Source: Crocinitomix sp. (GTDB taxonomy: Bacteria > Bacteroidota > Bacteroidia > Flavobacteriales_D > Crocinitomicaceae). From it: a stretch of DNA of 36,509 nucleotides. The notes under the pieces are model-generated. The model worked only from the letters and a program-made list of their open reading frames with translations. It had not been told where the DNA came from and searched no databases. The translations under genes were made by a program, and so were the position numbers. Below, piece after piece: positions 4,135 to 30,622 of the stretch (the stretch's first letter is position 1; each line of letters opens with the position of its first letter). Location of the stretch: contig JAURQI010000051.1 in assembly GCA_030836155.1 (NCBI GenBank), positions 1-36,509 of the forward strand, in the 5' to 3' direction.

Positions 4135-5241
4135 ATGCCGAGAAATAAACGACTTCATTTTAAAGATCTTAACGCCTTAAGAGGACTTGCGTTTTTTCCA
4201 GTGTTTATTTTTTGCACGCTTTATTACATTAGTGCTGGTCAAAATGGTATGCTTAAAGAAATTAATTTTTTCGTAGAGAAAATTGCTCAGAACTCACTGG
4301 ATTTTTTCTTTTTGCTATCGGCTTTTCTTCTGACCTCTCATGCTTTACGTGAATATAAATACCTTGAAGGCTTTTCGTTAAAAAACTTCTACATTCGTCG
4401 ACTTTTCAGAATTGCACCGGTCCTCATTTTAGCATTAATTTTTACTTTTATTTTCCATCCATGGATGAATGACAAGCTCGCCTTGCATGAAATTTCACTT
4501 CCAAGTGCTGCTCCTTTTTTATACATGCTACCTAATTATTTTTCAAGTTCATTTCAATTCCTCTTTATTGCCATAATAGCGTCAATTTATCTTTTTCTGC
4601 AGTTTTATTTTGTATGGGGAATCGTATTAAAATATTTACGGGACTTCATTCCTCATGTCGGTATCGCATTAGTGGTATTTGGCATTGTTGTTCGCATGGT
4701 CCATATCTACAAAGGCACAAGTCATGTATTGGATACCATGGCTTATGCAACACCTATTGGCGTTGGTGCTTTTTTAGCTTATGCAGTAAGGGCTGATTTG
4801 AAAATAATCCAACGACTAAAAGAAATCCCAAAAAACATAAATACCGTTATATATATTGTTGGAACCATTCTAATCATTGGCGGATATATCCTAACTTCGA
4901 AGCATTTTTCTTCTGCGTTTATCCCGTTGTTTACATCTGTATTTTTCGGCTATGTAATTGTGGAACAAACGTTTGGAAAAAACTCTTTTGTTCAATTAAA
5001 GAACCAAAAAGTATTAACCCATCTGGGACGGGTCAGCTTTGGACTCATTGTTTATCAAAGTCTGATCGCTTTTTTGGTGATGATTGCGTTTGAATCGCTT
5101 GAAGGTGACTTAAACTCACCTTATGCCCTACTACTTATTTTGCTAAGTAGTTTCATTGGCGCCATCGTTGCTGCCAATATCAGTTACAAAATACTTGAAA
5201 AGCCGTTACTTCGAATTCGCCGAGAATTCAAAAAGATTTAA
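4135..5241 (+). CDS. Acyltransferase-3 family integral membrane protein
   Basis: This family (OafA/NodX type) moves acyl groups, often acetyl, onto surface sugars or other extracytoplasmic acceptors. The 368-residue protein is almost entirely membrane-spanning, with about ten hydrophobic segments. The family hallmarks are visible: LNALRGLAFF at the N-terminus, LDFFFLLSAFLLT near 55-67, and LKNFYIRRLFRIAPVL near 81-97. One feature is odd. In the first helix the family normally has Arg followed 11 positions later by His, an important residue; here the residue at that position is Cys (RGLAFFPVFIFC). The activity may therefore be changed or lost. The gene stands alone on the plus strand, and its stop codon overlaps the stop of the convergent ABC-F gene. 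The substrate is unknown. Confidence 0.8.
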   Translation: MPRNKRLHFKDLNALRGLAFFPVFIFCTLYYISAGQNGMLKEINFFVEKIAQNSLDFFFLLSAFLLTSHALREYKYLEGFSLKNFYIRRLFRIAPVLILALIFTFIFHPWMNDKLALHEISLPSAAPFLYMLPNYFSSSFQFLFIAIIASIYLFLQFYFVWGIVLKYLRDFIPHVGIALVVFGIVVRMVHIYKGTSHVLDTMAYATPIGVGAFLAYAVRADLKIIQRLKEIPKNINTVIYIVGTILIIGGYILTSKHFSSAFIPLFTSVFFGYVIVEQTFGKNSFVQLKNQKVLTHLGRVSFGLIVYQSLIAFLVMIAFESLEGDLNSPYALLLILLSSFIGAIVAANISYKILEKPLLRIRREFKKI

Positions 5242-7184
5242 TCCTCTAATTCCGCTTTTTCTAACTCGGCATTCTCCCAAGTTGCCATTGCTTCTTCGAG
5301 TTCTTTTTGCGTCGCATTAAAACCAGCCAATAGGGATTTATATTCTTCAGATTCGTTGTATGGCGTTTCATCAAGTATGACTGTTTTTTCTTTCAACTCA
5401 ACTTCTAACTCCTCAATTCTACGCTCCCATTTTTTGATCTTACTATCCAGTCTTTTAAGATGAAGTTGTTCTTCTCTCGATAACACTTTTTCTTCTTCAA
5501 CCACTACCTCTTCAAGCTTCGGCGTTGTTTTCGCTTTCTTTTTGGCATGCTCGCTTTGCATTGATTGAGCATTTCCTTCTTCGTCCAAGCGTTTCAGAAA
5601 TTCATTGACACCAAAATAATGCGTTCGAATCCTTCCTTCTCGTATTTCCCAAATCTTATTACTTAAGCCATCTAAAAACTCACGGTCGTGCGAAACGAGC
5701 AACAAGGTTCCCTCATAGTTACCCAATGCATCCTTCAGAATCTCCTTACTTTGGATATCTAGATGGTTGGTTGGCTCATCCATGATCAGGAAATTAAAAT
5801 CCTCAAATAATAGTTTACAAATAGCTAGACGCGTGCGCTCCCCACCTGAAAGAACCTTAACTTGTTTTTCAGAGTCTTCACCACTGAATAAAAAGGCTCC
5901 GAGTATACTTCGAATATCTTTTCGTTTTTCGCCAACAGCGATATCGTCAATTGTTTTAAATACCGTTTTTTCAGGATCGAGTTGTTCTGCTGCATCTTGC
6001 GCAAAATATCCAACACGAACATTATGGCCATATTCAATTTGCCCATCGTATTCGGTTTGGCGAGTGATACATTTGATCAAGGTCGATTTCCCCACTCCGT
6101 TGGGTCCAAGCAATGCGATTTTTTCACCTCTTGCTAGCACCACTTCTAATCCGTTAAAAATGGTTTTTTCGCCAAATGATTTTTTTAATCCTGCCAAATC
6201 CAATACTCGCTTTCCTGACGGGTTTTCAAGTGAAAAACGCAAATGGAATGCTTTTCTAGCAATGGTATCAATTTCGATACGCTCAACCTTATCTAACTTT
6301 TTGATTAAACTCTGAGCAAAAGCGGCTTTATTGGCCTTTGCTCGGTATTTATTGATGAGATCCTCGGTTCTCTTGATTTCGCGATCTTGGTTTTTCTTAG
6401 CAGCAATGGCGCGCTCCATCTCCTCTTCATGCAAAACCAAATATTTTGAATAATTGCAACTATAATCATATAGTCGTTGATTTGCAATCTCAACGGTGCG
6501 ATTTGTAACATTGTCCAAGAATCGCCGGTCGTGCGAAATCAAAACCAAGCCTCCTTTAAAGTTTATCAAGTAATTCTCCAACCATTGAATTGAAACAATG
6601 TCTAAGTGGTTGGTTGGCTCATCTATCAATAGAACCTCAGGGTTGTTAACTAGTAATTTGGCCAATTCTACACGCATTTGCCAACCTCCACTAAAACTAC
6701 CAATTTCTAAGTCAAATTCACCTTGGTTAAAACCTAAACCTTTTAAAACAAGTTCTATTCGCTCCTCAAAAGAATGAGCGTCCAAAACAACCAAACGATC
6801 ATTAATCTCTGTCACTTCGTTGATCAGTGACATGTATTCATCTGATTCATAATCAGTACGTGTCGTCAATTCATTATTGACAAAATTTAATCTTTCATTC
6901 AATGACTGAATTTCCTGATTCGAACGTTTGATATACTCACGAACGGATATATCCTTTCGGATCTCAATGTCTTGGGTTAAATAACCAATCGACGCTCCCT
7001 TTTCGACAACTACAGTTCCTTCTGTAGGTTTTATTTGTCCAGAAATAATACCGAGCAAGGTTGATTTACCGACTCCATTTTTACCTGTAAGACCAATTTT
7101 ATCGCCACGATCAATAAACAAGGAGATATCCTTATAAAGGAAACCTTGCGGTAAATGATAGGAAAGGGCACCAATACGAACCAT
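5238..7184 (-). CDS. ABC-F family ATPase (Uup/YheS-like)
   Basis: ABC-F proteins are soluble twin ATPases without membrane domains; characterised members act on the ribosome. The 648 residues contain two complete nucleotide-binding domains. The first has Walker A GKNGVGKST (34-42) and signature SFSGGWQMR. The second has Walker A GPNGVGKST and signature LSGGERTR. Both have an LLIDEPTNHLD or LIMDEPTNHLD Walker B. Between them lies the charged P-site tRNA-interaction motif linker (around YLVLHEEEMERAIAAKK). The C-terminus carries a charged, helical, probably coiled-coil extension from about residue 545, as in Uup-type members. Its own promoter lies just upstream. The exact subfamily cannot be fixed by eye, so no symbol is given. 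Antibiotic resistance is not implied. Confidence 0.92.
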   Translation of the reverse strand: MVRIGALSYHLPQGFLYKDISLFIDRGDKIGLTGKNGVGKSTLLGIISGQIKPTEGTVVVEKGASIGYLTQDIEIRKDISVREYIKRSNQEIQSLNERLNFVNNELTTRTDYESDEYMSLINEVTEINDRLVVLDAHSFEERIELVLKGLGFNQGEFDLEIGSFSGGWQMRVELAKLLVNNPEVLLIDEPTNHLDIVSIQWLENYLINFKGGLVLISHDRRFLDNVTNRTVEIANQRLYDYSCNYSKYLVLHEEEMERAIAAKKNQDREIKRTEDLINKYRAKANKAAFAQSLIKKLDKVERIEIDTIARKAFHLRFSLENPSGKRVLDLAGLKKSFGEKTIFNGLEVVLARGEKIALLGPNGVGKSTLIKCITRQTEYDGQIEYGHNVRVGYFAQDAAEQLDPEKTVFKTIDDIAVGEKRKDIRSILGAFLFSGEDSEKQVKVLSGGERTRLAICKLLFEDFNFLIMDEPTNHLDIQSKEILKDALGNYEGTLLLVSHDREFLDGLSNKIWEIREGRIRTHYFGVNEFLKRLDEEGNAQSMQSEHAKKKAKTTPKLEEVVVEEEKVLSREEQLHLKRLDSKIKKWERRIEELEVELKEKTVILDETPYNESEEYKSLLAGFNATQKELEEAMATWENAELEKAELED

Positions 7185-7201: not shown

Positions 7202-7232
7202 CAAATGTAGGCATTCGAATCTTGCAAACAAA
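7202..7232 (-). promoter_or_regulatory. Promoter of the ABC-F gene
   Basis: On the minus strand TTTG (7229-7232) is followed after 19 nt by TACATTTG (7202-7209), an exact match to the Bacteroidota consensus. The start codon is about 18 nt downstream of the -7 box. The -33 element lies inside the T-tract of the preceding gldM2 terminator. Confidence 0.75.
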
Positions 7233-7269
7233 AAAAAGCAGGCATGAGCACCAAACTTGCTCAGCCCGC
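7231..7269 (-). terminator. Rho-independent terminator after gldM2
   Basis: On the minus strand GCGGGC-TGAGCA pairs with TGCTCA-T-GCCTGC (12 bp with one G-U pair and one bulged T) around a 7-nt loop, followed by eight T. It closes the gldM2 transcript. Its T-tract doubles as part of the ABC-F promoter. Confidence 0.8.
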
Positions 7270-7305
7270 CTTTTTTACACGGTTTATCTTTAATTCTATT
7301 TTGGT

Positions 7306-9018
7306 CTATCTCACGGTAAATGTCACAGCTCCCTTGCGGACAGTATTGGAAGGATCAGCATAGTCTACAAATATCGTGACGGTTTTTCCAGAACTTTGCC
7401 TTAATAAGCGCATTGCATCAGTATCTAAAGTTCCTCCTCGATTTACTTTGCCTTTCCCCATGAGTCCCCCTACCATTACCGTACCACCTGTTATCGTATA
7501 GGTTATGCCCGTTAAATTAACTTCTGACCCCAGTGTTGTTCTCAGGCGATTCTGCGCTAGTACTGTCGGTCTTGAAACATGATCTCCGCTTTTAATGGAT
7601 CCTAGCATGATTTGTGGAGCTGGTAAGCCTTTGACATCATAAGCATAAGAACCCAAATTAACGGAAGTACCATCTGATTTTTGTGCGATAACACTAATCG
7701 TTGCCTCCCTTGCTCCATCTACGGGTGATGCAATCCACTGGCCGCCTTCTTTTCTTATTTTGCATCCGCTTCCTTTTAGAGTTACCTTATCTGCAGGAAA
7801 ACCACTTGCTGTTGCTTCCAGCACATTTCGGTATCCGCGATAAAGCACACGCATTTGAGGTTGCGATACAACTCCCATAGGTTGACCAACTGTATAGTCA
7901 AATGACCAAGGTTTCCATACAAGACCACCACGTTCGCGCACACCAATCGCTCCTTTTAATTTATGTGGACCCGGTGCTGCGCCGTCCAAGGTAATTCCTC
8001 CGGTTGTTTCTTTCCATCTTTCTGGAAGCGTATCGGCGTCCATACCCCACTTTATCTTGTATACCTCCGTTGAATCATAGGCCGCAATCAAAACGTTTAA
8101 TTCCATTGAATCACCCATGTTCATATATGCCGTAGGAGCAATAGCCATTGGTTCAATCTTATTTACCGGATAAGGCGGCTCATCAATTTTAGCGAGCATA
8201 TATCCCGAAGCAATCGACTCAGCATTTTTAACATCCACCTTTAATGATGTGAACATTGCCGCAGCAGCGACTAACGGTGCATGATTAAAAGTAACCGATA
8301 CCCAAGGCATTTCTTTTTCTTCTCCTGGATCATATAAAGTTTCCGGAATGGACAGTGCTTTGTAGAAGTGAGCGAGATAAGCGGTGTCTCTTGGGTTTGC
8401 CTTTAGTAAAGCTTTTGATAATTCACGCGCGTTACCAGGGGGCGTAAATGACCAGTTCTTATTTTTTTCTTGATAAGTACCCATTGATTGAACAATCTTA
8501 TCTCTAAAGGCATGAATCCGCTCTCTAATGACCAAGCCTCTTTCTATTGGTTTCTCAGGATTACCACCAATGAATAATTGAGTCGGTACGTCATAATTAT
8601 CTTTGACTCCGATCTCCATTAAAGGTTTTAGCTGATTGACATTACCATTTTCATCCCGTCCATTTTGCGCTATCCAATCTTTCCCTTCCACTTCTTTAAT
8701 CATGTCGTTACACTCTTGTAGAAGGTAACCAACCAACTCACTGGTTTCTGCTTTAAGTGTATCCGCTTTGGATTTCCATGTATTACATAGGGTTAAGTCT
8801 GCTTGTTTTGCTATTAAGGTCATTCGTTTCATATCGAACATTAAATAATCCTCATTGACTTTATCATTAATAATGGTTGCACTTTGATCCAGCTTATCAT
8901 TGATGGTTACAAATGCGTTAACAACTTCTTTGGTCACATTGAGGGCCAATAAGGCTGTTAAGACCAAGTACATCATCCCGATCATTTTTTGTCTTGGTGT
9001 TTGCTTTCCTCCTGCCAT
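7306..9018 (-). CDS. GldM/PorM paralogue, second copy (T9SS motor)
   Basis: GldM is the inner-membrane-anchored, long periplasmic partner of GldL in the proton-powered T9SS and gliding motor. This second copy has 570 residues from the ATG at 9018. An upstream in-frame GTG at 9045 would add nine residues but is rejected, because the ATG product (MAGGKQTPRQKM) aligns at its first residue with gldM copy 1. One membrane helix follows (IGMMYLVLTALLALNV). The positively charged Arg9 that pairs with the GldL glutamate in the F. johnsoniae motor is present. The periplasmic part shows the same landmarks as copy 1: FIGGNPEKP, FNHAPLVAAAAM, NKIEPMA, YTVGQPMGVVS, MRVLYRGY. Strong terminators lie both before and after the gene, so it should be a separate transcription unit; no clear promoter was found. 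It may correspond to gldP of F. johnsoniae, which I recall as a gldM-like gene beside gldO. Confidence 0.9.
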   Translation of the reverse strand: MAGGKQTPRQKMIGMMYLVLTALLALNVTKEVVNAFVTINDKLDQSATIINDKVNEDYLMFDMKRMTLIAKQADLTLCNTWKSKADTLKAETSELVGYLLQECNDMIKEVEGKDWIAQNGRDENGNVNQLKPLMEIGVKDNYDVPTQLFIGGNPEKPIERGLVIRERIHAFRDKIVQSMGTYQEKNKNWSFTPPGNARELSKALLKANPRDTAYLAHFYKALSIPETLYDPGEEKEMPWVSVTFNHAPLVAAAAMFTSLKVDVKNAESIASGYMLAKIDEPPYPVNKIEPMAIAPTAYMNMGDSMELNVLIAAYDSTEVYKIKWGMDADTLPERWKETTGGITLDGAAPGPHKLKGAIGVRERGGLVWKPWSFDYTVGQPMGVVSQPQMRVLYRGYRNVLEATASGFPADKVTLKGSGCKIRKEGGQWIASPVDGAREATISVIAQKSDGTSVNLGSYAYDVKGLPAPQIMLGSIKSGDHVSRPTVLAQNRLRTTLGSEVNLTGITYTITGGTVMVGGLMGKGKVNRGGTLDTDAMRLLRQSSGKTVTIFVDYADPSNTVRKGAVTFTVR

Positions 9019-9111
9019 TGTATTTGATTTTAATTCCCCTTGCACAGGGATGGTTTATAGAAGGAATACAGAATTGAATAAGAAGTAACAAAAAACATTT
9101 ACGCCAACAAT

Positions 9112-9148
9112 AAAAAGGCGAGAAACACCGAAGTGTTCTCGCCTTTTT
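9112..9148 (-). terminator. Strong terminator after gldN2 with a UUCG tetraloop
   Basis: On the minus strand AAAAAGGCGAGAACAC pairs with GTGTTTCTCGCCTTTTT (one bulged base) around C(TTCG)G, one of the most stable RNA tetraloops, ending in five T. It lies between gldN2 and gldM2 and should stop readthrough from one to the other. Confidence 0.9.
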
Positions 9149-9175
9149 ATTCACGTTTCATTGGGTTAATGAAAG

Positions 9176-10180
9176 TTAATATTCCCAAAGATCAGCTTCA
9201 ATATTATTTAATCGATTTTCTATTTTTTCCGATTCTAAGAGTGCATCTTGGCCAGATTTATAACTGTCAATTTCACGCCCATAAATATTGGATTCTTTGA
9301 CTATATAGCTCTGAAACATTCTCTTCCAAAATAAATCATCCAATGACATGCGTTGCGCATCATTATGTCGATTGGCCAAAAAATAATTTTGAAAAACATA
9401 ACGGCATTCTGGAAAATAGAGCCAGAATAATTCTCGAAGTCCTGTTATGTTTCCATTTACATCTCGCTCATAGACAATGGGTGCAATTCCAATAACACGA
9501 CGTTCTGTCTTTGATCTTTCTTTATCGAAAAACCAATCCTCTTTAATTTTATATTGCACAATATCTGATGATGTAAACCACGTTGTATCTGGATCGGGAT
9601 AAACAACCTTCCTTATATCAAGAATTGGATCATAGATAGTGCTATCTTCAGCAGGATCGATTTGACTCTTTAACGGGGGAGTAAATGGATCTTGATAAGT
9701 GGATCCGAGATAAATAAATAATTCTTCACGGAACAATGAATCATTGTAATAATTTCCCCCTGGTAGGCTTGATTGGATAGGATACTTAAAGCCATCGCCA
9801 TCTTTCCAATCTTCCCAATTAGGATTGAAAGGAGAATACAGGGTTAAGTCACCATTTAGAATATGTTGACGTATAATTGTCCACATGCTCCATGTCTGCG
9901 GATTTTTATTCCACATACTTTCTTGGATGTCATCTAGTGGATAATAAAGGGGTTGATTAAATTTTTGACGCAGATCAATGACGCTCCAAACGCGCTTACT
10001 CCATACAACGTCCGCCTCACGAACAGGCTCATAGGCAACGACTCTTTTGGTTGGAATATGTTCTGATATATAGACACCATCCATTACACCAGCAGCTGGG
10101 GTTGGTATTGGTCCTCTGATAAATTGCGCATGATTTGAAAAGGCCATGGACAAGCCTAACGATAGAATTAAGTACTTCAT
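9176..10180 (-). CDS. GldN/PorN paralogue, second copy (T9SS ring)
   Basis: GldN forms, with the lipoprotein GldK, the periplasmic ring attached to the outer membrane in the T9SS. This copy has 334 residues from the ATG at 10180. An upstream TTG/GTG-type start would only prepend residues that do not resemble a signal peptide. The N-terminus MKYLILSLGLSMAFSNHA-Q is a signal peptide. The mature part tracks gldN copy 1 closely by eye, including VWSVIDLRQKFNQPLYYP, YSPFNPNWEDWKDGD, YKIKEDWFFDKERS and LRELFWLYFPECRYVFQN. The divergent parts are the signal peptide, a loop around residues 165-195, and the extreme C-terminus. Terminators flank it on both sides. In F. johnsoniae gldO is a gldN duplicate directly after gldN, so this may be positionally equivalent. 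Confidence 0.92.
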   Translation of the reverse strand: MKYLILSLGLSMAFSNHAQFIRGPIPTPAAGVMDGVYISEHIPTKRVVAYEPVREADVVWSKRVWSVIDLRQKFNQPLYYPLDDIQESMWNKNPQTWSMWTIIRQHILNGDLTLYSPFNPNWEDWKDGDGFKYPIQSSLPGGNYYNDSLFREELFIYLGSTYQDPFTPPLKSQIDPAEDSTIYDPILDIRKVVYPDPDTTWFTSSDIVQYKIKEDWFFDKERSKTERRVIGIAPIVYERDVNGNITGLRELFWLYFPECRYVFQNYFLANRHNDAQRMSLDDLFWKRMFQSYIVKESNIYGREIDSYKSGQDALLESEKIENRLNNIEADLWEY

Positions 10181-10273
10181 AGGTTTGGTTTTAGTGATAC
10201 AATGCACGTGAGGGAGCATGATTCGTATAAAACCGGTACCAATACAATGTCAATTATAAAATTCGTTACAAAA

Positions 10274-10304
10274 AAAAGGTGTTAGTCAGAGACTAACACC
10301 TTTT
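10274..10304 (-). terminator. Perfect-stem terminator after gldN copy 1
   Basis: AAAAGGTGTTAGTC and GACTAACACCTTTT form a perfect 14-bp stem with a 3-nt loop. On the minus strand the T-run is seven long. It ends the gldK-gldL-gldM-gldN transcript about 20 nt after gldN copy 1. Confidence 0.92.
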
Positions 10305-10324
10305 CATTTTCTTATGGATCAACA

Positions 10325-11326
10325 CTAGAAGCTCCAGAGGTCATGTTCGAAATTAAAGATCTTCTCTTTAATCCGTTCAGACTCGAGCAAGGCATCAACC
10401 CCAGCTTTGTAGCTATCTATATCTCGATCGTATAAATTTGTTTCTTTGACGATATAACTTTGGAACATTCGTTTCCAAAATAAGTCATCAAATGACATTC
10501 GTTGCGAGTCGTTGTGACGACTTTGAACGAAGAAGTTCTGGAATACATATCGACACTCCGGGAAATACAACCAGAATAGTTCACGAAGTCCAGCAATGTT
10601 TCCATTACCATCTATTCGATATACTACAGGCGCTACTCCGATAATACGACGATCTAATACTGAACGTTCTTTATCAAAAAACCAATCTTCTTTAATCTTG
10701 TACTGAATAATATCCTTTGAAGTAAACCAAATGGTATCACTTGGAGGATATACCGCTGTCCAGTTACCAAATTCATCCTGAACCAAACTATCTTCGTCCG
10801 GATATACATAACTTTTTAATGGCTCAGCAAAAGGATCAACAAGCTCAGTTCCCATGTAAATAAACATTCTTTCACGGAACTCTTTGTCATTGTAATAATT
10901 TCCACCAGGATTATTAGGAACAACAGGATACTTGAACATATCACCATCTTTCCAATCTTCCCAATCAGGATTAAATGGAGAGTAGATAGTCAAATCTCCT
11001 GTCATCACATGATGACGAATGATCGTCCATAAACTCCAACGAGACGAGTTCTTTTTCCACATCCCTTCCTGAAGGTCATCCATTGGATAATAAAGCGGAT
11101 GATTGAATTTCTCTCTTAAGTCAATCACACTCCACACACGCTTACTCCAAGTAACATCCGCTTCACGAACGTATTCGTAAGGGACTACTTTCTTCGTTGG
11201 TACATGTTCTTTCACATATACCCCATCCAAAACACCTGGCGCTGGATTCGCGATTGGACCGCGAATATCCTGAGCTATAGTAGCTCCAGCACTCAACATC
11301 ATCAAAGAAAAAATTAATCTTTTCAT
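10325..11326 (-). CDS. gldN: GldN/PorN, T9SS ring component
   Basis: This is the first GldN, the GldK partner in the periplasmic ring needed for T9SS secretion and gliding. The 333 residues start with a signal peptide (MKRLIFSLMMLSAGATIA-Q). The mature protein has the family landmarks VWSVIDLREKFNHPLYYP, IYSPFNPDWEDWKDGD, IIQYKIKEDWFFDKERS, LRELFWLYFPECRYVFQN and DDLFWKRMFQSYIVKE. It lies 57 nt downstream of gldM on the same strand, which is the standard K-L-M-N order, and is considered the ancestral copy for that reason. A hairpin sits in the gldM-gldN spacer and may set the ratio between the two products. Confidence 0.95.
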   Translation of the reverse strand: MKRLIFSLMMLSAGATIAQDIRGPIANPAPGVLDGVYVKEHVPTKKVVPYEYVREADVTWSKRVWSVIDLREKFNHPLYYPMDDLQEGMWKKNSSRWSLWTIIRHHVMTGDLTIYSPFNPDWEDWKDGDMFKYPVVPNNPGGNYYNDKEFRERMFIYMGTELVDPFAEPLKSYVYPDEDSLVQDEFGNWTAVYPPSDTIWFTSKDIIQYKIKEDWFFDKERSVLDRRIIGVAPVVYRIDGNGNIAGLRELFWLYFPECRYVFQNFFVQSRHNDSQRMSFDDLFWKRMFQSYIVKETNLYDRDIDSYKAGVDALLESERIKEKIFNFEHDLWSF

Positions 11327-11353
11327 CTCGCCTAGTTTTACATTTGTTTAAAG

Positions 11354-11377
11354 TGGAGAGTGAAGGCTCACTCTCCA
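11354..11377 (-). other. Hairpin in the gldM-gldN spacer
   Basis: TGGAGAGTGA and TCACTCTCCA form a perfect 10-bp stem with a 4-nt loop, seven bases after the gldM stop. In the transcription direction only three T follow (CTTTAAAC), so it is a weak terminator at most. An attenuator or an RNA-processing or stability element is more likely. In the plus direction it is followed by five T. Confidence 0.6.
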
Positions 11378-11383
11378 TTTTTA

Positions 11384-13111
11384 TTATCTCGTTGTGAAAA
11401 CCAATGCTGTTCTTTTCGAAACACCATCTGGTCCACGATAGTTCACCATGATTGTCACCTGTTTTCCACGTGACTGTGCTAAAATTTTCGTAGCATTTGC
11501 ATCAAGTGATCCACCACTGTTAATTTTACCTTTTCGCATTACACCGTCAACAGATACTGTTCCATTTACAATGCTAAACTTAACATTTGTCAAAGGCACA
11601 CTGTCGTCGTATCTACAAGAAACACGTCCTTGAGATTTCACACTTGAAAGACCAGGAGACTGTCCTTGAGAAATACCACCCAAGTATAAATTTGGTGTTG
11701 GCAATGATTTAACTTTGAACTTGAAAGAACCTAAATTCACAGATCCTCCGTCGTCTTTACGACCGTTCACACTAATCGTTGCTTCACGAACACCAGCTCC
11801 TACTTTTGCAATGTATCCCGGTCCGCTCTTACTTAAAGAACACCCACTACCCGATAAGGTTACACGGTCTGCAGGGAAACCTGAAGCGGTTCCTTCTACT
11901 TTATTGTCATAACCACGGTATAATACACGCATTTCAGGTAATGAAACTACACCCATTGGCTGACCAACAGTATAATTAAATTCCCAAGGTTTTGGTACTT
12001 CAACACCACGTTGCTTAACATAGATCACACCTCTTACTTTGTGCGCTCCTGCTTGATCACCTGGTAAAGAAATACCGTCTCTTTTCTCATCTAAGAATCG
12101 TTTCCAGTTTTCAGTATTAGATGTATCAGCATCCATTCCGTAGTCTAGTTTCACAATTTCAGTTGAATCATAAGCCGCGATCATTACGCGAAGCTTTAAT
12201 GAATCTCCTTGGTTGATATAACCAGTTTCCGCAAACGCCAATGGTTCAATTTTGTTAAAATCAAACTCTTGAACATCTACTTTCGATAATAAGAAACCAG
12301 TCGCCATTGACTCAGCATTCTTAATATCCAACTTCATAGAAGTTAACATTGCTGCCGCTGCAACAATTGGTGCGTGATCGAACATTACTGAAGGCCATGG
12401 AAGAGTTTCCTCAACTCCGTGAACCTTACGCGTAATCTCCTCTGGAATATCCAACGCCATCATGAATTTCTTGATTTGCGCTGTATCATCCGGATTCGCC
12501 GTTTTCAAAGCCGCATCCAATTGACTGATGTCTTCTGGAGCTTTAAAGGTGTATTTACCTTTAGCATCATCATAATTACCCATGATTTCTGCCACTTTGT
12601 TTCGGTATTCGAGAATTGTTTTACGAATCGCTAGCCCTTCCTCTTTAGGTTGTTCAGGATTTCCACCAATGAAGCGGTTAGTTGGTACATCATAGTTGTC
12701 CATAGCAGAGATATCTGCTAAAGGCTTTAAACTAACAATGTATTCTCCATCCTTCTCTTCTACCCAATCAACTCCACCTTCTACTTCTTTAATCATTTCG
12801 TTACATTCCCCTAAAAGGAAACTAACGACTTTCTTTGTTTCTTCCTGAACCTGAGCAGCACGATCTTGCCATACTTTTAATGGCTTGATGTCCATACCTT
12901 GTGCTTTTGCAGTAATGATCTTTTTCTCAAAAGCAGCATAGATTCCGTTATTATTTGTATTAATGATCTCAGCACTACGGTCCAACTTATCGTTGATCGT
13001 CACGAAAGCAGCAATTACCTGCTTAGAAACGTTCAATGCAAGAAGGGCAGTCAGTACGAGGTACATCATACCGATCATTTTCTGTCTGGGGGTTTCTTTT
13101 CCTCCTGCCAT
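11384..13111 (-). CDS. gldM: GldM/PorM, T9SS motor protein
   Basis: GldM passes mechanical energy from the proton-driven GldL ring across the periplasm to GldK-GldN. The 575 residues start with MAGGKETPRQKM, then a single membrane helix (about 12-31), then the long periplasmic part built of consecutive beta domains. Arg9, the residue known to face the GldL glutamate in the membrane, is present. Landmarks such as FIGGNPEQP, FDHAPIVAAAAM, YTVGQPMGVVSLPEMRVLYRGY and a C-terminal domain ending in TALVFTTR agree with GldM proteins of usual length (about 515-580). It follows gldL by 53 nt. It is considered copy 1 because of its place in the canonical K-L-M-N order. A close paralogue lies at 7306-9018. 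Confidence 0.96.
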   Translation of the reverse strand: MAGGKETPRQKMIGMMYLVLTALLALNVSKQVIAAFVTINDKLDRSAEIINTNNNGIYAAFEKKIITAKAQGMDIKPLKVWQDRAAQVQEETKKVVSFLLGECNEMIKEVEGGVDWVEEKDGEYIVSLKPLADISAMDNYDVPTNRFIGGNPEQPKEEGLAIRKTILEYRNKVAEIMGNYDDAKGKYTFKAPEDISQLDAALKTANPDDTAQIKKFMMALDIPEEITRKVHGVEETLPWPSVMFDHAPIVAAAAMLTSMKLDIKNAESMATGFLLSKVDVQEFDFNKIEPLAFAETGYINQGDSLKLRVMIAAYDSTEIVKLDYGMDADTSNTENWKRFLDEKRDGISLPGDQAGAHKVRGVIYVKQRGVEVPKPWEFNYTVGQPMGVVSLPEMRVLYRGYDNKVEGTASGFPADRVTLSGSGCSLSKSGPGYIAKVGAGVREATISVNGRKDDGGSVNLGSFKFKVKSLPTPNLYLGGISQGQSPGLSSVKSQGRVSCRYDDSVPLTNVKFSIVNGTVSVDGVMRKGKINSGGSLDANATKILAQSRGKQVTIMVNYRGPDGVSKRTALVFTTR

Positions 13112-13164: not shown

Positions 13165-14010
13165 TTAATCTCTAGATATAGTCATAGCTTTTAGCATATT
13201 ACCATAAACTTGATTTAAATCAGTCAAGTTCTTAGATAACATTGCCATGTTTTCTTTGTACAATTTAGTATCCTCAATAGAGTCACTTAAATTTTCCATC
13301 ATCTCAGTAACTTGAGATTGGAATTTTTCAGTGCTTTCTAGATGCTGGCTAGAACCTTTCAATTGTAACTCATATACATTGTTTAATGCAGATAAGTTAG
13401 TTGATACTTTCTGTAATTGCTCACCGAAAGAAGCTCCTTCTTCAGCACCTGAAGTTAATCCTAATAATGACTCAGAAGCACGATCATAAGTCTCTGATAA
13501 AGTAGCTACTTTAGTTGAAGCGCTTTCCAAAGAAGAAACATAAGAATCTGTAGCTGCAGCAGCTCCAGAAACAGCTTTCAAACCTTCAGCGTTTTCGCTC
13601 AATGTTCTGATACCATCCCCTAAGCGATTTAACAACTCAGCGTCAATCTTAGCTTCCTCTAGTAGGCTATCAAACTTCTCAGTGATACCAGTAACGGAAC
13701 CTCCGCCACCACCACCGTGATGCGATAAACCTGACTCACCTTTTTCGTCTAGATAAGCATGAAGATCGAAATCTTCATCATGTGCTAATGCTAGTTCAGG
13801 GTATACTAATTCCCACTTTGGATCTTCATGTAACGGTTCGAATGCCGAGAAGAAGAAGATAACTGCTTCAGTCAATAGACCGACAACAAGCATGGGTCCT
13901 GCACCTGGCCAGTGCATGATTTTAAATAGTGCTCCCAAAATTACGACTGCTGCTCCAATACCGTAGAGCTTCGCCATAAATAATTTCCATTTTTTAGTTC
14001 CTGGTCTCAT
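13165..14010 (-). CDS. gldL: GldL/PorL, proton-channel motor protein of T9SS
   Basis: GldL forms the membrane pentamer around GldM and converts proton flow into movement. The 281 residues have two membrane helices at about 17-32 and 39-57. The polar residues that make the proton path in F. johnsoniae GldL (Tyr13, Lys27, His30, Glu49, Glu59) have matching candidates here: Tyr16, Lys30, His33, Glu48 and Glu58. The sequence KIMHWPGAGPMLVVGLLTEA is typical. After the conserved LVYPEL the cytoplasmic tail is long, rich in Ser, Glu and Ala, and probably coiled-coil (about 105-281). It is the only gldL in the window although two gldM genes are present. It starts 75 nt after gldK. Confidence 0.96.
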   Translation of the reverse strand: MRPGTKKWKLFMAKLYGIGAAVVILGALFKIMHWPGAGPMLVVGLLTEAVIFFFSAFEPLHEDPKWELVYPELALAHDEDFDLHAYLDEKGESGLSHHGGGGGGSVTGITEKFDSLLEEAKIDAELLNRLGDGIRTLSENAEGLKAVSGAAAATDSYVSSLESASTKVATLSETYDRASESLLGLTSGAEEGASFGEQLQKVSTNLSALNNVYELQLKGSSQHLESTEKFQSQVTEMMENLSDSIEDTKLYKENMAMLSKNLTDLNQVYGNMLKAMTISRD

Positions 14011-15764: not shown

Positions 15765-16751
15765 TTACTGCAAGATAAATGGATTACCATGTCTTGGTAC
15801 AATTGGCGGAGGCGGGAACATACAATAGTTCACCATCAATTCATGTGTTCCTTTACCATATTCATTCAATGGATTTGTCATAATATCAAATGAATATCCA
15901 ATTTGTAAAGCATCTTTTTGAGAATCATCACTCGGCGGGAATCCGTAACCAACCATTACTCCAATAGCGTCAGAAAGTCGGTATGTTACACCTCCCCAGA
16001 AGTAGGCTTTATTATTAATCCAGATATCAGCCATTACGTTTAAGTCAAACACCATTGTTGATCCGTCAGCTTTTAACAATAAGCTAGGCTTTAAATCGAT
16101 CACGTTAGCAGTACCAATTGCGTCAGATAAACGGTACTTGTAACCAGCCATCACATAATAGTGACGAGCAACTGAATAATTAATTTGAGTAAGCGCTGAT
16201 AAACCTGGCGCCAAATGCGTTGAAGACAATCCAACATAGTAACCTTCGTTACCATACCAGAACAAACCAAAGTTCATATCCATCTTTGTTTGTCCAACTG
16301 GATTTTCAATATCTGCGATTGTTGCATCATAAACATCTGTTGGCGGTACCCAATTTGGGCTAAACCCAACGTTAATAATCCCCAATCCTAAACCTCCACT
16401 TAACGTACCATATGGTGTAGGAAGGTGATACGCTCCGTTAACCGTTAGGTTATTATTTCGCATAAAACCAATGGCATCATTATGAAATGACAAACCAACG
16501 CCTAAACCACCTGGTCCAAGTGTTACATTTTGCAAGTTTCCTTGAGCGTTAAACAATGTTGTATTCGGTGCATCTTGCACTCGATCCCATTGATTTCTGT
16601 ATATCAATGTTCCGCAATAACCTTTAAATCCAGTTGTTGCCGGATTAAATGACATGCGATCAAACATGTAATGTGTAAACTGCTTATCCTGCTGAGCGTA
16701 AGTCAAGCTTACTGATATACAGCACAATAACAACGATAAAACTTTCTTCAT
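15765..16751 (-). CDS. PorP/SprF family T9SS outer-membrane protein, copy 1
   Basis: PorP/SprF proteins are beta-barrel outer-membrane components of the T9SS; PorP is needed for secretion in P. gingivalis and SprF for SprB adhesin export in F. johnsoniae. The 328 residues begin at the ATG at 16751 (an in-frame TTG two codons earlier is rejected). The signal peptide MKKVLSLLLCCISVSLTYA is followed by the family signature QQDKQFTHYMFDRMSFNPA, then YRNQWDRVQDAPNTTLFN and GGLGVGLSFHNDAIG. Alternating hydrophobic strands continue to a final NPFILQ. It lies directly before gldK, as porP does before porK in P. gingivalis. The second copy upstream is clearly homologous along the whole length. I do not choose between porP and sprF. 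Confidence 0.93.
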   Translation of the reverse strand: MKKVLSLLLCCISVSLTYAQQDKQFTHYMFDRMSFNPATTGFKGYCGTLIYRNQWDRVQDAPNTTLFNAQGNLQNVTLGPGGLGVGLSFHNDAIGFMRNNNLTVNGAYHLPTPYGTLSGGLGLGIINVGFSPNWVPPTDVYDATIADIENPVGQTKMDMNFGLFWYGNEGYYVGLSSTHLAPGLSALTQINYSVARHYYVMAGYKYRLSDAIGTANVIDLKPSLLLKADGSTMVFDLNVMADIWINNKAYFWGGVTYRLSDAIGVMVGYGFPPSDDSQKDALQIGYSFDIMTNPLNEYGKGTHELMVNYCMFPPPPIVPRHGNPFILQ

Positions 16752-17090
16752 AAACAAGTTTTTCTATACCATTTTAGTGTCAGAACACTCCAACAAGTGG
16801 CTAAAATAAATAAAAATAATGGAAAACTAAATTTTTTCTTTTAAAGTTTTATCTTCTTCATCGACGGTTCTAAACCAAATTCTCAATCGATTTTAAACAA
16901 AACATATTCTGAAATTCATTCAGTTCTTATCTATTATCCAATATCTCAACCACAAAATAAAGAGCGCTCAACAGATTCCTCTGTCTTAAGTTAATACGCT
17001 ATCAACTTTTAAAAGTTTCAATGAACAAGAAAATACTACCGTTTAATCAACAAGAAGCTTACTTTATGTTAAAAATTTAAAACCTTGGTT
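16752..17090. other. AT-rich spacer between the two porP genes
   Basis: A 339-bp segment with no credible reading frame. It holds the TTCTGAC motif close to porP copy 1 and, at 17004-17017, a 14-bp AT-rich palindrome (AACTTTTAAAAGTT). No hairpin with a T-tract and no TAnnTTTG promoter in the transcribed orientation was found. Its length is unusual within an otherwise tightly packed minus-strand run. Confidence 0.6.
16779..16785 (-). promoter_or_regulatory. TTCTGAC motif upstream of porP copy 1
   Basis: The minus strand reads TTCTGAC, 28 nt before the ATG and preceded by TG, giving TGTTCTGAC as in the porP copy 2 leader. See also gldK. Confidence 0.3.
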
Positions 17091-18038
17091 TTACATGAGT
17101 ATATGCGGACAAACCGTGCGAATAATTTTCTTTGCTGGAGGAAAAATGCTGTACTGGATCATTAATTCATGTGAACCACTACCCCACACTTTCATCGGGT
17201 TGGTCATAAACTCGAGTGCGTAACCAAAACTCAGGTCACCTAGACTCATCCCAGCCATTAAGCCTGCTCCGTCACTGAATCGGTAAGTTGCTCCAACCCA
17301 TACGGTTTGTGAATTCATTAAATCATATTCTGCGCGAATATTAAAGTCAAAAACTGCCGTTGCTCCATCTGCTTTTATCAGAACCGAAGGTTTTAACTCA
17401 AACTGCCGATTGTTTCCGACATTAAAATGAGTTCCAGCTAAAACATAATAATGGCGTTGACTCGTATAACTCATCTGCTGATAATCTGCTTCAGCTAGGT
17501 GTGTTGTGGAAAAACCAATATAACCAAGGCGATTGGTATAGTAGAGTCCTCCGTTAAAATCAAATTTAGTTTCAGCTACTTTATTTACGAGGTTACTGAT
17601 TGTTGGATCCATCGCAATAGGGTCAGTCGGTGTAATCCATTCTCCATCGATTGCCATTTGTAAAAACCCTAACCCAAGTCCAGCACTAAATTTCCCAATT
17701 GGTGTTTGGATATGGTATGCGCCATTGAGCTTTAAATTGTTCTGTCTCACTGAGCCGATCGCATCATTATTAAATGATAAGCCCAGTCCGATTGCACCTG
17801 GAACGTGAATGATATTATCCAAATTACCTTGCACATTAAACAAGGTAGTATTTGGAGCATTTTCAACTTTATCCCATTGATTTCTATAAATCATTGTTCC
17901 CGTATAACCTTTAAATCCGGTAATAGCTGGATTAAATGACATCCCGTCGAATGAATAGAAAGTGAGTTGGCGATCTTGTTGTGCAAACAAAAAACAAGAT
18001 GCTGAAATAAGAAAAAATGTACTGAGTAATTTTATCAT
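17091..18038 (-). CDS. PorP/SprF family T9SS outer-membrane protein, copy 2
   Basis: A second, full-length member of the PorP/SprF family, 315 residues. The signal peptide MIKLLSTFFLISASCFLFA is followed by QQDRQLTFYSFDGMSFNPA, then YRNQWDKVENAPNTTLFN and GLGLSFNNDAIG, which line up with copy 1. The C-terminal half has the same succession of short beta strands and ends in HELMIQYSIFPPAKK plus a short tail. In this family duplicates often pair with particular large adhesins or other cargo; no such adhesin gene is in the window. It lies 78 nt after the arginase-like gene on the same strand. Relative to copy 1 it is diverged enough to suggest a different partner and not a recent duplication. Confidence 0.9.
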   Translation of the reverse strand: MIKLLSTFFLISASCFLFAQQDRQLTFYSFDGMSFNPAITGFKGYTGTMIYRNQWDKVENAPNTTLFNVQGNLDNIIHVPGAIGLGLSFNNDAIGSVRQNNLKLNGAYHIQTPIGKFSAGLGLGFLQMAIDGEWITPTDPIAMDPTISNLVNKVAETKFDFNGGLYYTNRLGYIGFSTTHLAEADYQQMSYTSQRHYYVLAGTHFNVGNNRQFELKPSVLIKADGATAVFDFNIRAEYDLMNSQTVWVGATYRFSDGAGLMAGMSLGDLSFGYALEFMTNPMKVWGSGSHELMIQYSIFPPAKKIIRTVCPHILM

Positions 18039-28741: not shown

Positions 28742-30622
28742 TTATTTCTTCACCCAAGGACGTATATACGTCTTGTTATTTTCTGTCGTTATGCGAATGT
28801 GATACATTCCTGTATTCAAACTGCTTACATTTATAGCCTTTTCATCATTTAGCGCATCTTGCAACACTACCTGTCCCATTATGTCATAAATCTGATAAGT
28901 TATGTTCGATGCTTCATCAACCTGAATAAAAAGTTGATCTTCCGTTGGGTTAGGGAAAAGACTCATCAGTGGGTTTTGGTAATCCTCATTTAACGATAAA
29001 AAGGCATTCTCTCCGGGTAACCTCACATAGCTTGGGTAGGCATCAGAATGATGCACATTAATCTGAGCGATACTCCCAGCTCCGTCGACGTGCATCTCTC
29101 CACCATCTTGCAAATTAACATGATATCGAATGGCATTATTACCAGAGACGTAAATCTTAATCTGATGTCCAGTCAACCACGTATAATTCGTGAATGGCAG
29201 GTTAATATCGACTTCGTAGACTTCTCCAGGGTCCATGAATTCTTCCGCTGCTTCTGTATAATCCCCACCGCGAAAACGCATCCGCTGAATGCCATCTGTT
29301 ATCAGCATGCTTCGTCCATCAGGATAAACATCTACCAAACGAATAGCAATATCACAATCGGGTTGATCTGCCGAAACATATAAATGTACTTTAACGCGAC
29401 CTGTAATACTCACTGGTGCTAACAGTGCATTGGTTTCGAATGTAATTACATCATCTCTCGTATCAAGAGAAGATTGGTCAAAAGGTCCTTGTTCTAATTC
29501 ATCACTTAAAGTAGCTCCACCAATAGTTGGTGATGGATTTTCAGGATCAGAAATAAAGTTGGAGTAACCGCTACCTGGGCTTGCACCTAATCCATTTGAT
29601 TGGGTTAAATAAATATCGTCAGTAGATGTTGCTGCAATATCACTTTCATCTGAATATTTCCACTGATCATTCCCGCCCATTTCATAATAAGTGACCATTG
29701 GCGTTTCATCCCAACCATTGCCTTCATCCATTAAATAATACATCATAAAATCCCAAGCCATCGTATCGCTTCGGAACTCTGCATTATCATATTCTAATTC
29801 ACCTTGAACAGCGGAACCAACGTAAGCTTCTCCCGTTCCGCCATGGACCCACGGCCCCACTAACAACCATTGCTCATCCATAACCGCTGGATCCGCTAAA
29901 GATCTGCTATCCTTATAAAAATCCATCATTTTATCAATATTGTGATCATACCAACCGCCAATCTGTAGGGTCGGAATTTTTAATATACTCGGGAACCAAC
30001 TGCCGCTTTCTGCAGCCGCCCAGATTAGATTATCATACGGATTTGCAAGCACAATCGGAGATAGTCCATAACCCAATGCATCCAACTGATAAAGGCGTGC
30101 TTCTTCCAAAACGCCGCCAGTAAAATATGAATCGTAAGATTGATGCCCTGTGGCAACTAAAGGAACGGCACAAGTATGATTGGGGTGATCTTCACGTGCG
30201 GTTTGATATTGGATTCCTCCTAAAGCAGAGGGACCCCAAGTTCCGATACGATCGCGGTGCCAATCTTGCTCTGAAATCCATTGACAAATATCGTACCCAT
30301 CCTCTCCCCTATCAGCATCCGGATCAGCCGCTGGCATAGACCCATAAAAACCACGCCAATCAACAATCACCCAAATAAAAGGCTGATCATCTAAATCCGT
30401 ACCCACGCCCATCGGCAATGAAAATTGAAAGAAATCCTTATTATATGGCGTTTGAATTAAAATCACTTCTGCCGAATCTACTCCCTCGGGGATATAAACG
30501 TCGGCCTCTAATTCTGCTCCATCTCGAACGGGTATATAAATATCGTCAAAGGCCGGTATTAATATTTGCGCGTTGCTTAAAAGACTTCCTGCACAAACAA
30601 GAAAAAGTAATAATCCTTTCAT
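28742..30622 (-). CDS. Secreted CocE/NonD-type hydrolase with T9SS sorting tail
   Basis: This is a probable extracellular ester or peptide hydrolase exported by Sec and then by the T9SS. The 626 residues have a signal peptide (MKGLLLFLVCAGSLLSNA-Q), an alpha/beta-hydrolase domain beginning at IYIPVRDGAELEADVYIP, and a C-terminal jelly-roll typical of the X-Pro dipeptidyl-peptidase/CocE family. A plausible catalytic triad is Ser132 in GPSALGG, Asp226 in GGWYDH and His260 in GPWVHGG, matching cocaine esterase Ser/Asp/His positions in context. From about residue 550 a type-A T9SS sorting domain is present: LFPNPTEDQLFI, IYDIMGQVVLQ, LNTGMYHIRI, ending KTYIRPWVKK. The substrate is unknown. It is a direct candidate client for the secretion genes at 7306-18038. 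Confidence 0.92.
   Translation of the reverse strand: MKGLLLFLVCAGSLLSNAQILIPAFDDIYIPVRDGAELEADVYIPEGVDSAEVILIQTPYNKDFFQFSLPMGVGTDLDDQPFIWVIVDWRGFYGSMPAADPDADRGEDGYDICQWISEQDWHRDRIGTWGPSALGGIQYQTAREDHPNHTCAVPLVATGHQSYDSYFTGGVLEEARLYQLDALGYGLSPIVLANPYDNLIWAAAESGSWFPSILKIPTLQIGGWYDHNIDKMMDFYKDSRSLADPAVMDEQWLLVGPWVHGGTGEAYVGSAVQGELEYDNAEFRSDTMAWDFMMYYLMDEGNGWDETPMVTYYEMGGNDQWKYSDESDIAATSTDDIYLTQSNGLGASPGSGYSNFISDPENPSPTIGGATLSDELEQGPFDQSSLDTRDDVITFETNALLAPVSITGRVKVHLYVSADQPDCDIAIRLVDVYPDGRSMLITDGIQRMRFRGGDYTEAAEEFMDPGEVYEVDINLPFTNYTWLTGHQIKIYVSGNNAIRYHVNLQDGGEMHVDGAGSIAQINVHHSDAYPSYVRLPGENAFLSLNEDYQNPLMSLFPNPTEDQLFIQVDEASNITYQIYDIMGQVVLQDALNDEKAINVSSLNTGMYHIRITTENNKTYIRPWVKK

What the first reader, a model, noticed from the sequence alone, without database searches (positions are those of the whole stretch)
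7306..13111. Second gldN-gldM pair in swapped order next to the canonical gldKLMN
Seen: after gldK-gldL-gldM-gldN come a second gldN (9176-10180) and a second gldM (7306-9018), full length, with intact signal peptide or membrane helix, and conserved along their whole length. The second copies run N2 then M2. Known: F. johnsoniae has gldO (a gldN duplicate) after gldN, and I recall a gldM-like gldP beyond it. Inference: a second ring/motor set that can replace or mix with the first, perhaps for other cargo or surfaces. Both copies look too diverged for a recent duplication.
Basis: partly seen in the sequence, partly recalled or inferred. Interest (0 to 1): 0.7.

Follow-up and report, generated by a model that had tools for sequence, protein, structure and literature searches.

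The report
Spare gliding-motor shaft and ring genes
A bacterium of the genus Crocinitomix carries, beside its normal secretion-and-gliding motor operon, a second and probably weakly expressed gene for the motor's drive shaft (GldM) and another for its ring or track subunit (GldN), a natural test of whether one motor can be fitted with alternative moving parts.

Summary
M2 (7306-9018) and N2 (9176-10180) are intact, old paralogs of M1 and N1 beside gldK-L-M-N. The window belongs to Crocinitomix (Crocinitomicaceae). In most relatives read here N1 is followed by an ABC-F gene; the extra genes sit between the two.

It is not a second motor set: each of 15 genomes searched has one GldL over the family cut-off. 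N2 and M2 are probably not in the operon: a terminator hairpin follows N1, and both genes lack the codon adaptation of K, L and M1. They are separable: M2 occurs without N2, once within the genus, and N2 without M2. N2 is not gldO; Flavobacterium gldN-gldO pairs form their own clade, and no gldM copy follows gldO in 5 of 5 loci. One origin for all N2 tested is rejected; one origin for M2 of the Crocinitomix branch is not. The 'swapped order' thus probably records M duplicating first, then N.

Most likely M2 is an alternative shaft for the same GldL pentamer, with a faster-evolving ring-facing end (D3-D4), and N2 an alternative ring/track subunit. Expression, mixing and phenotype are inferred. 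New variant of a known kind.

The parts
7306..9018 (-). gldM2: second GldM (membrane helix plus periplasmic domains D1 to D4), 570 aa
9176..10180 (-). gldN2: second GldN, 334 aa
10325..11326 (-). gldN1: GldN of the canonical operon
11384..13111 (-). gldM1: GldM of the canonical operon
13165..14010 (-). gldL: the only GldL over the family cut-off in this genome
14085..15662 (-). gldK: ring/track lipoprotein
10274..10304 (-). terminator-like hairpin with U-run between gldN1 and gldN2 (-19.4 kcal/mol, z -4.9)
9109..9151 (-). strong hairpin with U-rich 3' side between gldN2 and gldM2 (-25.6 kcal/mol, z -6.6); missed by both detectors written here; coordinates approximate
7232..7275 (-). hairpin with U-run between gldM2 and the ABC-F gene (-28.4 kcal/mol for the stretch, z -2.5); missed by both detectors; coordinates approximate
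5238..7184 (-). ABC-F ATPase gene that directly follows gldN in relatives without the extra genes (flank, not part of the system)

Best explanation
M2 and N2 are alternative subunits for one and the same type IX secretion/gliding motor, not a second motor. M2 makes an alternative GldM shaft that plugs into the single GldL pentamer (shown: membrane segment nearly invariant, one GldL; inferred: assembly) and drives the GldK/GldN ring or track through a tip (D3-D4) that evolves faster than that of M1. N2 is an alternative GldN that can take places in the GldK ring/track (inferred from family and from gldO). The two genes are probably separate, weakly or conditionally expressed transcription units beside the strongly expressed gldKLMN operon (supported by hairpins and codon use; not measured). 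History: on the Crocinitomix branch an old gldM copy came first (M1-N1-M2); N2 arose later by local copying of gldN1, or was repeatedly overwritten from it, which leaves the order N1-N2-M2.
For: One GldL over cut-off in 15 of 15 genomes, G000 included. 27 of the first 30 GldM residues invariant in 16 rows of M1 and M2; M2 aligns to the F. johnsoniae motor GldM 6ys8 from residue 1. Passages of papers: GldM dimer inside a GldL pentamer (PMC8986121); PorM D4 binds PorN, cross-linked (PMC12421860; PMC5790014); GldK and GldN proposed as parts of the moving track (PMC12635249). D3/D4 divergence M2 against M1 3.0 and 2.0 times, D1 1.4. Terminator-like hairpin after N1: N1-N2 19 of 23, N1-M2 4 of 4, N1-abcF 21 of 21 sites; inside the operon K-L 0 of 68, L-M1 0 of 71, M1-N1 0 of 71. 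Codon adaptation beyond flank codon use: M1 z 5.8, L 4.2, K 4.6, N1 1.8; M2 -0.4, N2 -0.9; C. algicola M1 6.7, N1 3.3, M2 -0.1, N2 -0.1; groEL as positive control 7.4. In six Fluviicola loci pS is 0.41-0.57 for K and 0.30-0.49 for L but 0.71-0.83 for N2 and 0.66-0.77 for M2, like the flanks arg and abcF. On the Fluviicola branch M2-type genes of some species group (28 rows, 99*) with the M1 beside gldL of others, so the type can serve as the regular GldM. History; M1-N1-M2 without N2 in L098, L114, L120, L142.
Against: No expression, interaction or phenotype data. Window N1 is only weakly codon-adapted (z 1.8), and in the Crocinitomix MAG G150, which has M2 without N2, M2 is codon-adapted (z 3.7), so weak expression is not general. 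The generic scan found no excess of promoters (29 found, 33.7 expected) and lists the N1-N2 hairpin on the + strand only. Detected terminators are fewer after N2 (3 of 12) and M2 (7 of 18). A hairpin without U-run also lies between M1 and N1 (z -4.0). D4 is fast-evolving in GldM generally. Co-occurrence of M2 and N2 (Fisher p 1.7e-6) is not significant over independent pairs (5 pairs, median p 0.25), so a functional pairing of the two is not shown. Trees of thirds of GldN disagree, so overwriting of N2 by N1 is not separated from repeated birth.
Confidence: 0.6

Rival explanations
1. N2 and M2 form a dedicated matched pair, a private shaft-and-ring set (with shared GldL and GldK) for other cargo or surfaces.
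For: N2 and M2 are adjacent in 14 of 40 complete sites, against 4 with M2 only and 1 with N2 only; the fast-evolving part of M2 (D3-D4) is the part whose homologue in PorM binds PorN.
Against: M2 without a close N2 in five genomes: L098, L114, L120, L142 and the Crocinitomix MAG G150; N2 with a single full-length GldM in L130, L147, L107 and L140 (MAGs, so incomplete); independent-pairs test not significant; different histories.
Confidence: 0.2
2. Ordinary backup or dosage copies, as gldO partly backs up gldN in Flavobacterium: no special role, kept by weak selection and remade now and then.
For: gldO is partly redundant with gldN (passage in PMC9127263); gldN copies occur in 13 separate groups of the FastTree of 164 rows; codon use of M2 and N2 like the background; a broken M2 (L065) and a broken N2 (L122) occur.
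Against: M2 has residues common to 5 of 5 Crocinitomix M2 and absent from 4 of 4 M1 (T29, N34); between Fluviicola species M2 changes slowly at amino-acid level for its synonymous divergence (dN/dS 0.05 and 0.07 in two pairs), so it is under purifying selection.
Confidence: 0.18
3. One ancient N1-N2-M2 arrangement inherited by the whole family and lost often; N2 looks young only because gene conversion from N1 overwrote parts of it.
For: Same site and order in distant genera; the rejection of a single N2 clade comes mostly from the middle third of GldN (p-AU 4e-7, against 0.039 and 0.042 for the other thirds).
Against: Synonymous sites of the N1/N2 pairs are near saturation throughout, so no recent conversion; M2 trees do not give one clade once L045_M2 is added (p-AU 0.004); states with only M2 or only N2 are common.
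Confidence: 0.25

Closest known systems
gldN-gldO of Flavobacterium johnsoniae
   Same: Second gldN directly after gldN, same family, old duplicate; gldO partly redundant with gldN (passage in PMC9127263).
   Different: Separate duplication: five gldN-gldO-type pairs form one clade apart from all N1/N2 of Crocinitomicaceae (100/100); no gldM copy next to them in 5 of 5 loci.
GldM/PorM (GldLM 5:2 motor; PDB 6ys8, 7cmg, 6ey4)
   Same: M2 passes the GldM equivalog cut-off; sequence and model match these structures.
   Different: M2 is a paralog encoded outside gldKLMN, with faster-evolving D3-D4.
Extra porM orthologues of F. johnsoniae
   Same: More than one GldM in a genome; mentioned in one clause of PMC5790014.
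   Different: Their place and sequence were not seen here; second full-length GldM genes found away from gldKLMN in other families (L073-L080) are not the Crocinitomix M2.

Membership tests
GldM (TIGR03517) | Score over the equivalog cut-off of 180 bits | tested here: met
   M2 214.1 bits
GldM (TIGR03517) | N-terminal membrane helix that sits in GldL | tested here: met
   27 of 30 residues invariant in 16 rows; aligns to 6ys8 from residue 1. Binding to GldL not testable.
GldM (TIGR03517) | Periplasmic domains D1 to D4 | tested here: met
   Pfam D1-D3; AlphaFold2 model pLDDT 83.2, pTM 0.50 matches PorM 7cmg and GldM 6ey4 (TM-scores 0.29-0.39, elongated chain); D4 by position and model, not by Pfam.
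GldN (TIGR03523) | Score over the equivalog cut-off of 85.9 bits | tested here: met
   N2 169.2 bits; profile matches solved GldN/PorN chains. The N2 model was poor (pLDDT 58.8) and was not used.
gldO | Common descent with Flavobacterium gldO | tested here: not met
   10 Flavobacterium-type rows one clade (100/100), N2 with Crocinitomix N1 (99/93)
   None beside gldN-gldO in 5 of 5 loci; no paper with gldO and gldP in the library; the name was not verified.
Complete second GldLM motor | A second GldL | tested here: not met
   One over the cut-off in 15 of 15 genomes; only short weak matches besides, in G098, G104, G128 and G150

The most novel reading that the evidence does not exclude
M1 and M2 share one GldL pentamer as a heterodimer: the two shafts of the 5:2 motor become genetically different, with one conserved tip and one fast-evolving tip that engage neighbouring GldN1/GldN2 subunits of a mixed track, so that the cell can retune stepping, torque or grip by making more or less M2.
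Probability: 0.17. Interest if true: 0.78.

Novelty: new variant of a known kind. Interest (0 to 1): 0.47.

Why it matters
How a GldM dimer pushes the GldK/GldN ring or track is open: a recent model has one D4 tip bound to a GldN homologue and the other free (PorM, passage in PMC12421860). A natural paralog that keeps the membrane helix and changes the tip, with only one GldL to plug into, makes the question testable by separate deletion and swap of M1 and M2. It also shows that shaft and ring subunits of this motor duplicate independently and often in one family, which the literature searched here did not report (listings only).

Tried and rejected
Rejected: M2/N2 as orthologs of gldO/gldP. 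Rejected: a whole second motor. Rejected: recent duplication. Considered and dropped: absence of N2-M2 in the Crocinitomix MAG of L095; the genome search showed M2 about 21 kb from M1 beside the ABC-F gene. Considered: inserted neighbour genes as a clue to function; the genes between N and M2 in G142 (FG-GAP/ASPIC) and G150 (CotH, T9SS-tail, histidine kinase, HINT domains) gave no common theme. Led nowhere: N2 structure model; promoter scan; mapping of PorN contact loops onto N2 (not attempted beyond the alignments).

Rows dropped or chosen: 30 of the other 46 family-f1 genomes were fetched, picked from a list that was cut off. Trees leave out proteins under 430-450 aa (GldM) or 230-260 aa (GldN) and identical rows; the tree leaves out 31 of 168 GldM rows (other families). 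Loci are the best 80 by likeness to N2, so copy frequencies there are biased. The site counts keep one locus per identical GldL end. The first terminator detector gave N1-N2 14 of 23, N1-abcF 16 of 23, N2-M2 7 of 13, M2-abcF 7 of 19, and 0 of 71, 74 and 74 inside the operon; it missed the window's own hairpins, so it was rewritten, which still missed those after N2 and M2.
Full report
What is there. The window is the whole contig C4 of a 3.19 Mb genome. Reading leftwards on the minus strand it holds topA, an arginase-family gene, two PorP/SprF genes, gldK, gldL, gldM1, gldN1, gldN2, gldM2 and an ABC-F ATPase gene. All six gld genes pass the NCBIfam equivalog cut-offs. The genome's own family holds the named Crocinitomix algicola 0182: the contig of L096 has the length and position of G031, which genome-search runs the same genus. 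SprA is present in one piece, GldJ in pieces on two contigs below the curated cut-off, and there are 41 matches to the type B secretion tail TIGR04131, most but not all over the cut-off in the rows shown. So the secretion system around the copies looks complete enough to be in use.

Site and distribution. In other Flavobacteriales families read here gldN is followed by the ABC-F gene in 21 of the 23 short loci L003-L032 that reach far enough to contain gldN; the other two, L024 and L028, show no ABC-F gene. In Crocinitomicaceae the extra genes lie between gldN1 and ABC-F. Of 30 family-f1 genomes fetched (of 46 besides the window's own), 10 show N1-N2 then M2 (G031, G050, G104, G107, G120, G122, G124, G128, G132, G142; foreign genes lie between in some) and one, G098, shows N1, 11 kb of other genes, then M2-N2 in the unswapped order. 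The scan of named genomes adds further cases and two simpler states: M1-N1-M2 (L098, L114, L120, L142) and M1-N1-N2 (for example L130, L147, L107). Outside the family, G002 (f3) has N-N-M too, and G027 (f10) has M-N-M. Among 40 complete sites 14 have both copies, 4 only M2, 1 only N2, 21 neither (Fisher p 1.7e-6), but over independent pairs the link is not significant (5 pairs, median p 0.25).

Separable. Whole-genome searches confirm that the four M1-N1-M2 genomes and the Crocinitomix MAG G150 have no close second GldN; three of them (G541, G542, G150) have distant GldN-like matches (67 to 160 bits) elsewhere. In G150 gldM2 stands beside ABC-F about 21 kb from gldM1, and the stretch between, read in full in L177 and L178, holds no gldN2. 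G150 is 6.1 Mb and has two strong GldJ matches, so the MAG may be mixed, but M1 and M2 lie on one contig. Conversely L130, L147, L107 and L140 have N2 and one full-length GldM, while L123 and L126 have a second GldM on another contig.

History. A FastTree of 164 GldN rows puts N2 in 13 separate groups, as a rule next to N1 of the same or near species, N2 mostly on the longer branch. On a careful tree of 24 rows the four Crocinitomix N2 are one clade (100/98) beside Crocinitomix N1; one clade with the N2 of G098 and L097 is rejected (p-AU 0.0013), as is adding L099 (1.7e-4) and L045 (2.9e-34). For GldM, one clade of the Crocinitomix M2 with those of G098, L097 and L098 is not rejected (p-AU 0.357); with L099 0.0735; with L045 as well 0.004. 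Thus M2 looks older than N2 on this branch, and M1-N1-M2 plus a later local copy of N1 explains the 'swapped' order. Thirds of GldN disagree: the middle third carries most of the rejection (p-AU 4e-7), the outer thirds little (0.039, 0.042), and the last third speaks against own-genome pairing in G098 and L097 (0.042, 0.022). Old partial gene conversion is therefore a live rival. Recent conversion is not: N1/N2 pairs are near saturation at synonymous sites.

Not gldO. Five gldN-gldO-type loci of genus g60 were read (8 of 25 g60 genomes with a GldN match have two copies). GldM of one of them (L180) is nearly identical to the solved GldM 6ys8 over all 513 residues, which I recall as Flavobacterium johnsoniae. 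The ten GldN of these loci are one clade (100/100), away from all Crocinitomicaceae rows. In 5 of 5 loci a 357-359 aa gene, not a gldM, follows. Over the phylum sample 102 of 392 genomes have a GldN match; 14 show two matches, of which 10 are two genes and 4 one gene in two pieces.

Expression, inferred. Between gldN1 and gldN2 lies a hairpin with a U-run (-19.4 kcal/mol, z -4.9), between gldN2 and gldM2 one of -25.6 (z -6.6), and after gldM2 one in a stretch of -28.4 (z -2.5). Over Crocinitomicaceae loci a terminator-like hairpin follows N1 in 19 of 23 (before N2), 4 of 4 (before M2) and 21 of 21 (before ABC-F) sites but is found in 0 of 68, 0 of 71 and 0 of 71 gaps inside the operon; 0 of 1490 shuffles; after N2 3 of 12, after M2 7 of 18. 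A hairpin without U-run between M1 and N1 (z -4.0) is a caution, and the generic scan shows no promoter excess. Against codons drawn from flank usage for the same protein, K, L and M1 are adapted to ribosomal-protein codons (z 4.6, 4.2, 5.8), N1 weakly (1.8), N2 and M2 not (-0.9, -0.4); groEL gives 7.4. C. algicola shows the same split. In G150, with M2 but no N2, M2 is adapted (3.7), against a general rule. In six Fluviicola loci K and L differ less at synonymous sites (0.41-0.57; 0.30-0.49) than N2 and M2 (0.71-0.83; 0.66-0.77), which are like the flanks arg (0.69-0.83) and abcF (0.62-0.84).

How it likely works. GldM is a dimer whose membrane helices sit in a GldL pentamer (passages, PMC8986121) and whose D4 contacts GldN, shown for PorM-PorN by cross-link (passages, PMC12421860; PMC5790014). 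GldK and GldN have been proposed as part of the moving track (passages, PMC12635249). M2 keeps 27 of 30 membrane-segment residues common to 16 rows and Arg9 in 5 of 5 Crocinitomix M2 (the role of Arg9 is recalled), with a single GldL to bind. Its D3 and D4 diverge 3.0 and 2.0 times as fast as those of M1. On the Fluviicola branch M2 of some species and M1 beside gldL of others fall in one group of 28 rows (99*, 9 M2 and 19 M1 or unplaced rows), and close relatives differ in M1 type although their GldN1 are sisters (L107 against L123/L126/L127), so the types can trade the main place. The simplest reading is exchangeable shafts and ring subunits on one motor. Whether M1 and M2 mix in one dimer is open.

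Novelty. A second gldN is known (gldO), and extra porM orthologues of F. johnsoniae are mentioned in print. The linked, repeatedly formed N2/M2 of Crocinitomicaceae was not found in four searches (listings only). I file it as a new variant of a known kind.

Noticed in passing
G546:C151:31109-32206, G547:C22:49997-51049 (D1-D2 only); G142:C7:68445-69651, G107:C1:2237016-2237543, G104:C1:401772-402326 (D3-D4 only): Stand-alone open frames that match only GldM D1-D2 (about 400 aa) or only D3-D4 (mostly about 205-250 aa, 392 aa in G107) away from the operon in several Crocinitomicaceae genomes.
   Followed up: no
G098:C1:572813-573577, G541:C6:116991-117779, G542:C14:992992-993501, G150:C117:13683-14489: Distant GldN-like matches (114 to 160 bits) far from gldKLMN; the one in G150 has a stop inside.
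   Followed up: no
L073-L080: Full-length GldM genes away from gldKLMN in families f9 (7 loci) and f3 (1 locus, L075), one clade apart (99*).
   Followed up: partly
window 15765-16757 and 17091-18038: Two PorP/SprF genes before gldK show the same split as M1/M2: one codon-adapted (z 4.7), one not (z -0.4). G150 also has two.
   Followed up: partly
L044 (G104): GldM1 only 55-58% identical to that of five other Fluviicola loci while GldK and GldL are 92-97% identical: the M1 gene seems to have been replaced by another type.
   Followed up: partly
L065 5019-6802; L122: A second gldM (L065) and a second gldN (L122) split into two frames: decay or sequence error.
   Followed up: no
L100, L103-L105, L113, L119, L141, L147, L166, L171: MAG records named Chryseobacterium, Chitinophaga or Candidatus Kuenenia carry Crocinitomicaceae-like or other Flavobacteriales-like gld loci; the names look wrong.
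   Followed up: no
window 28742-30622 (-): S15-family peptidase with a T9SS sorting tail, a likely cargo, on the same contig.
   Followed up: no
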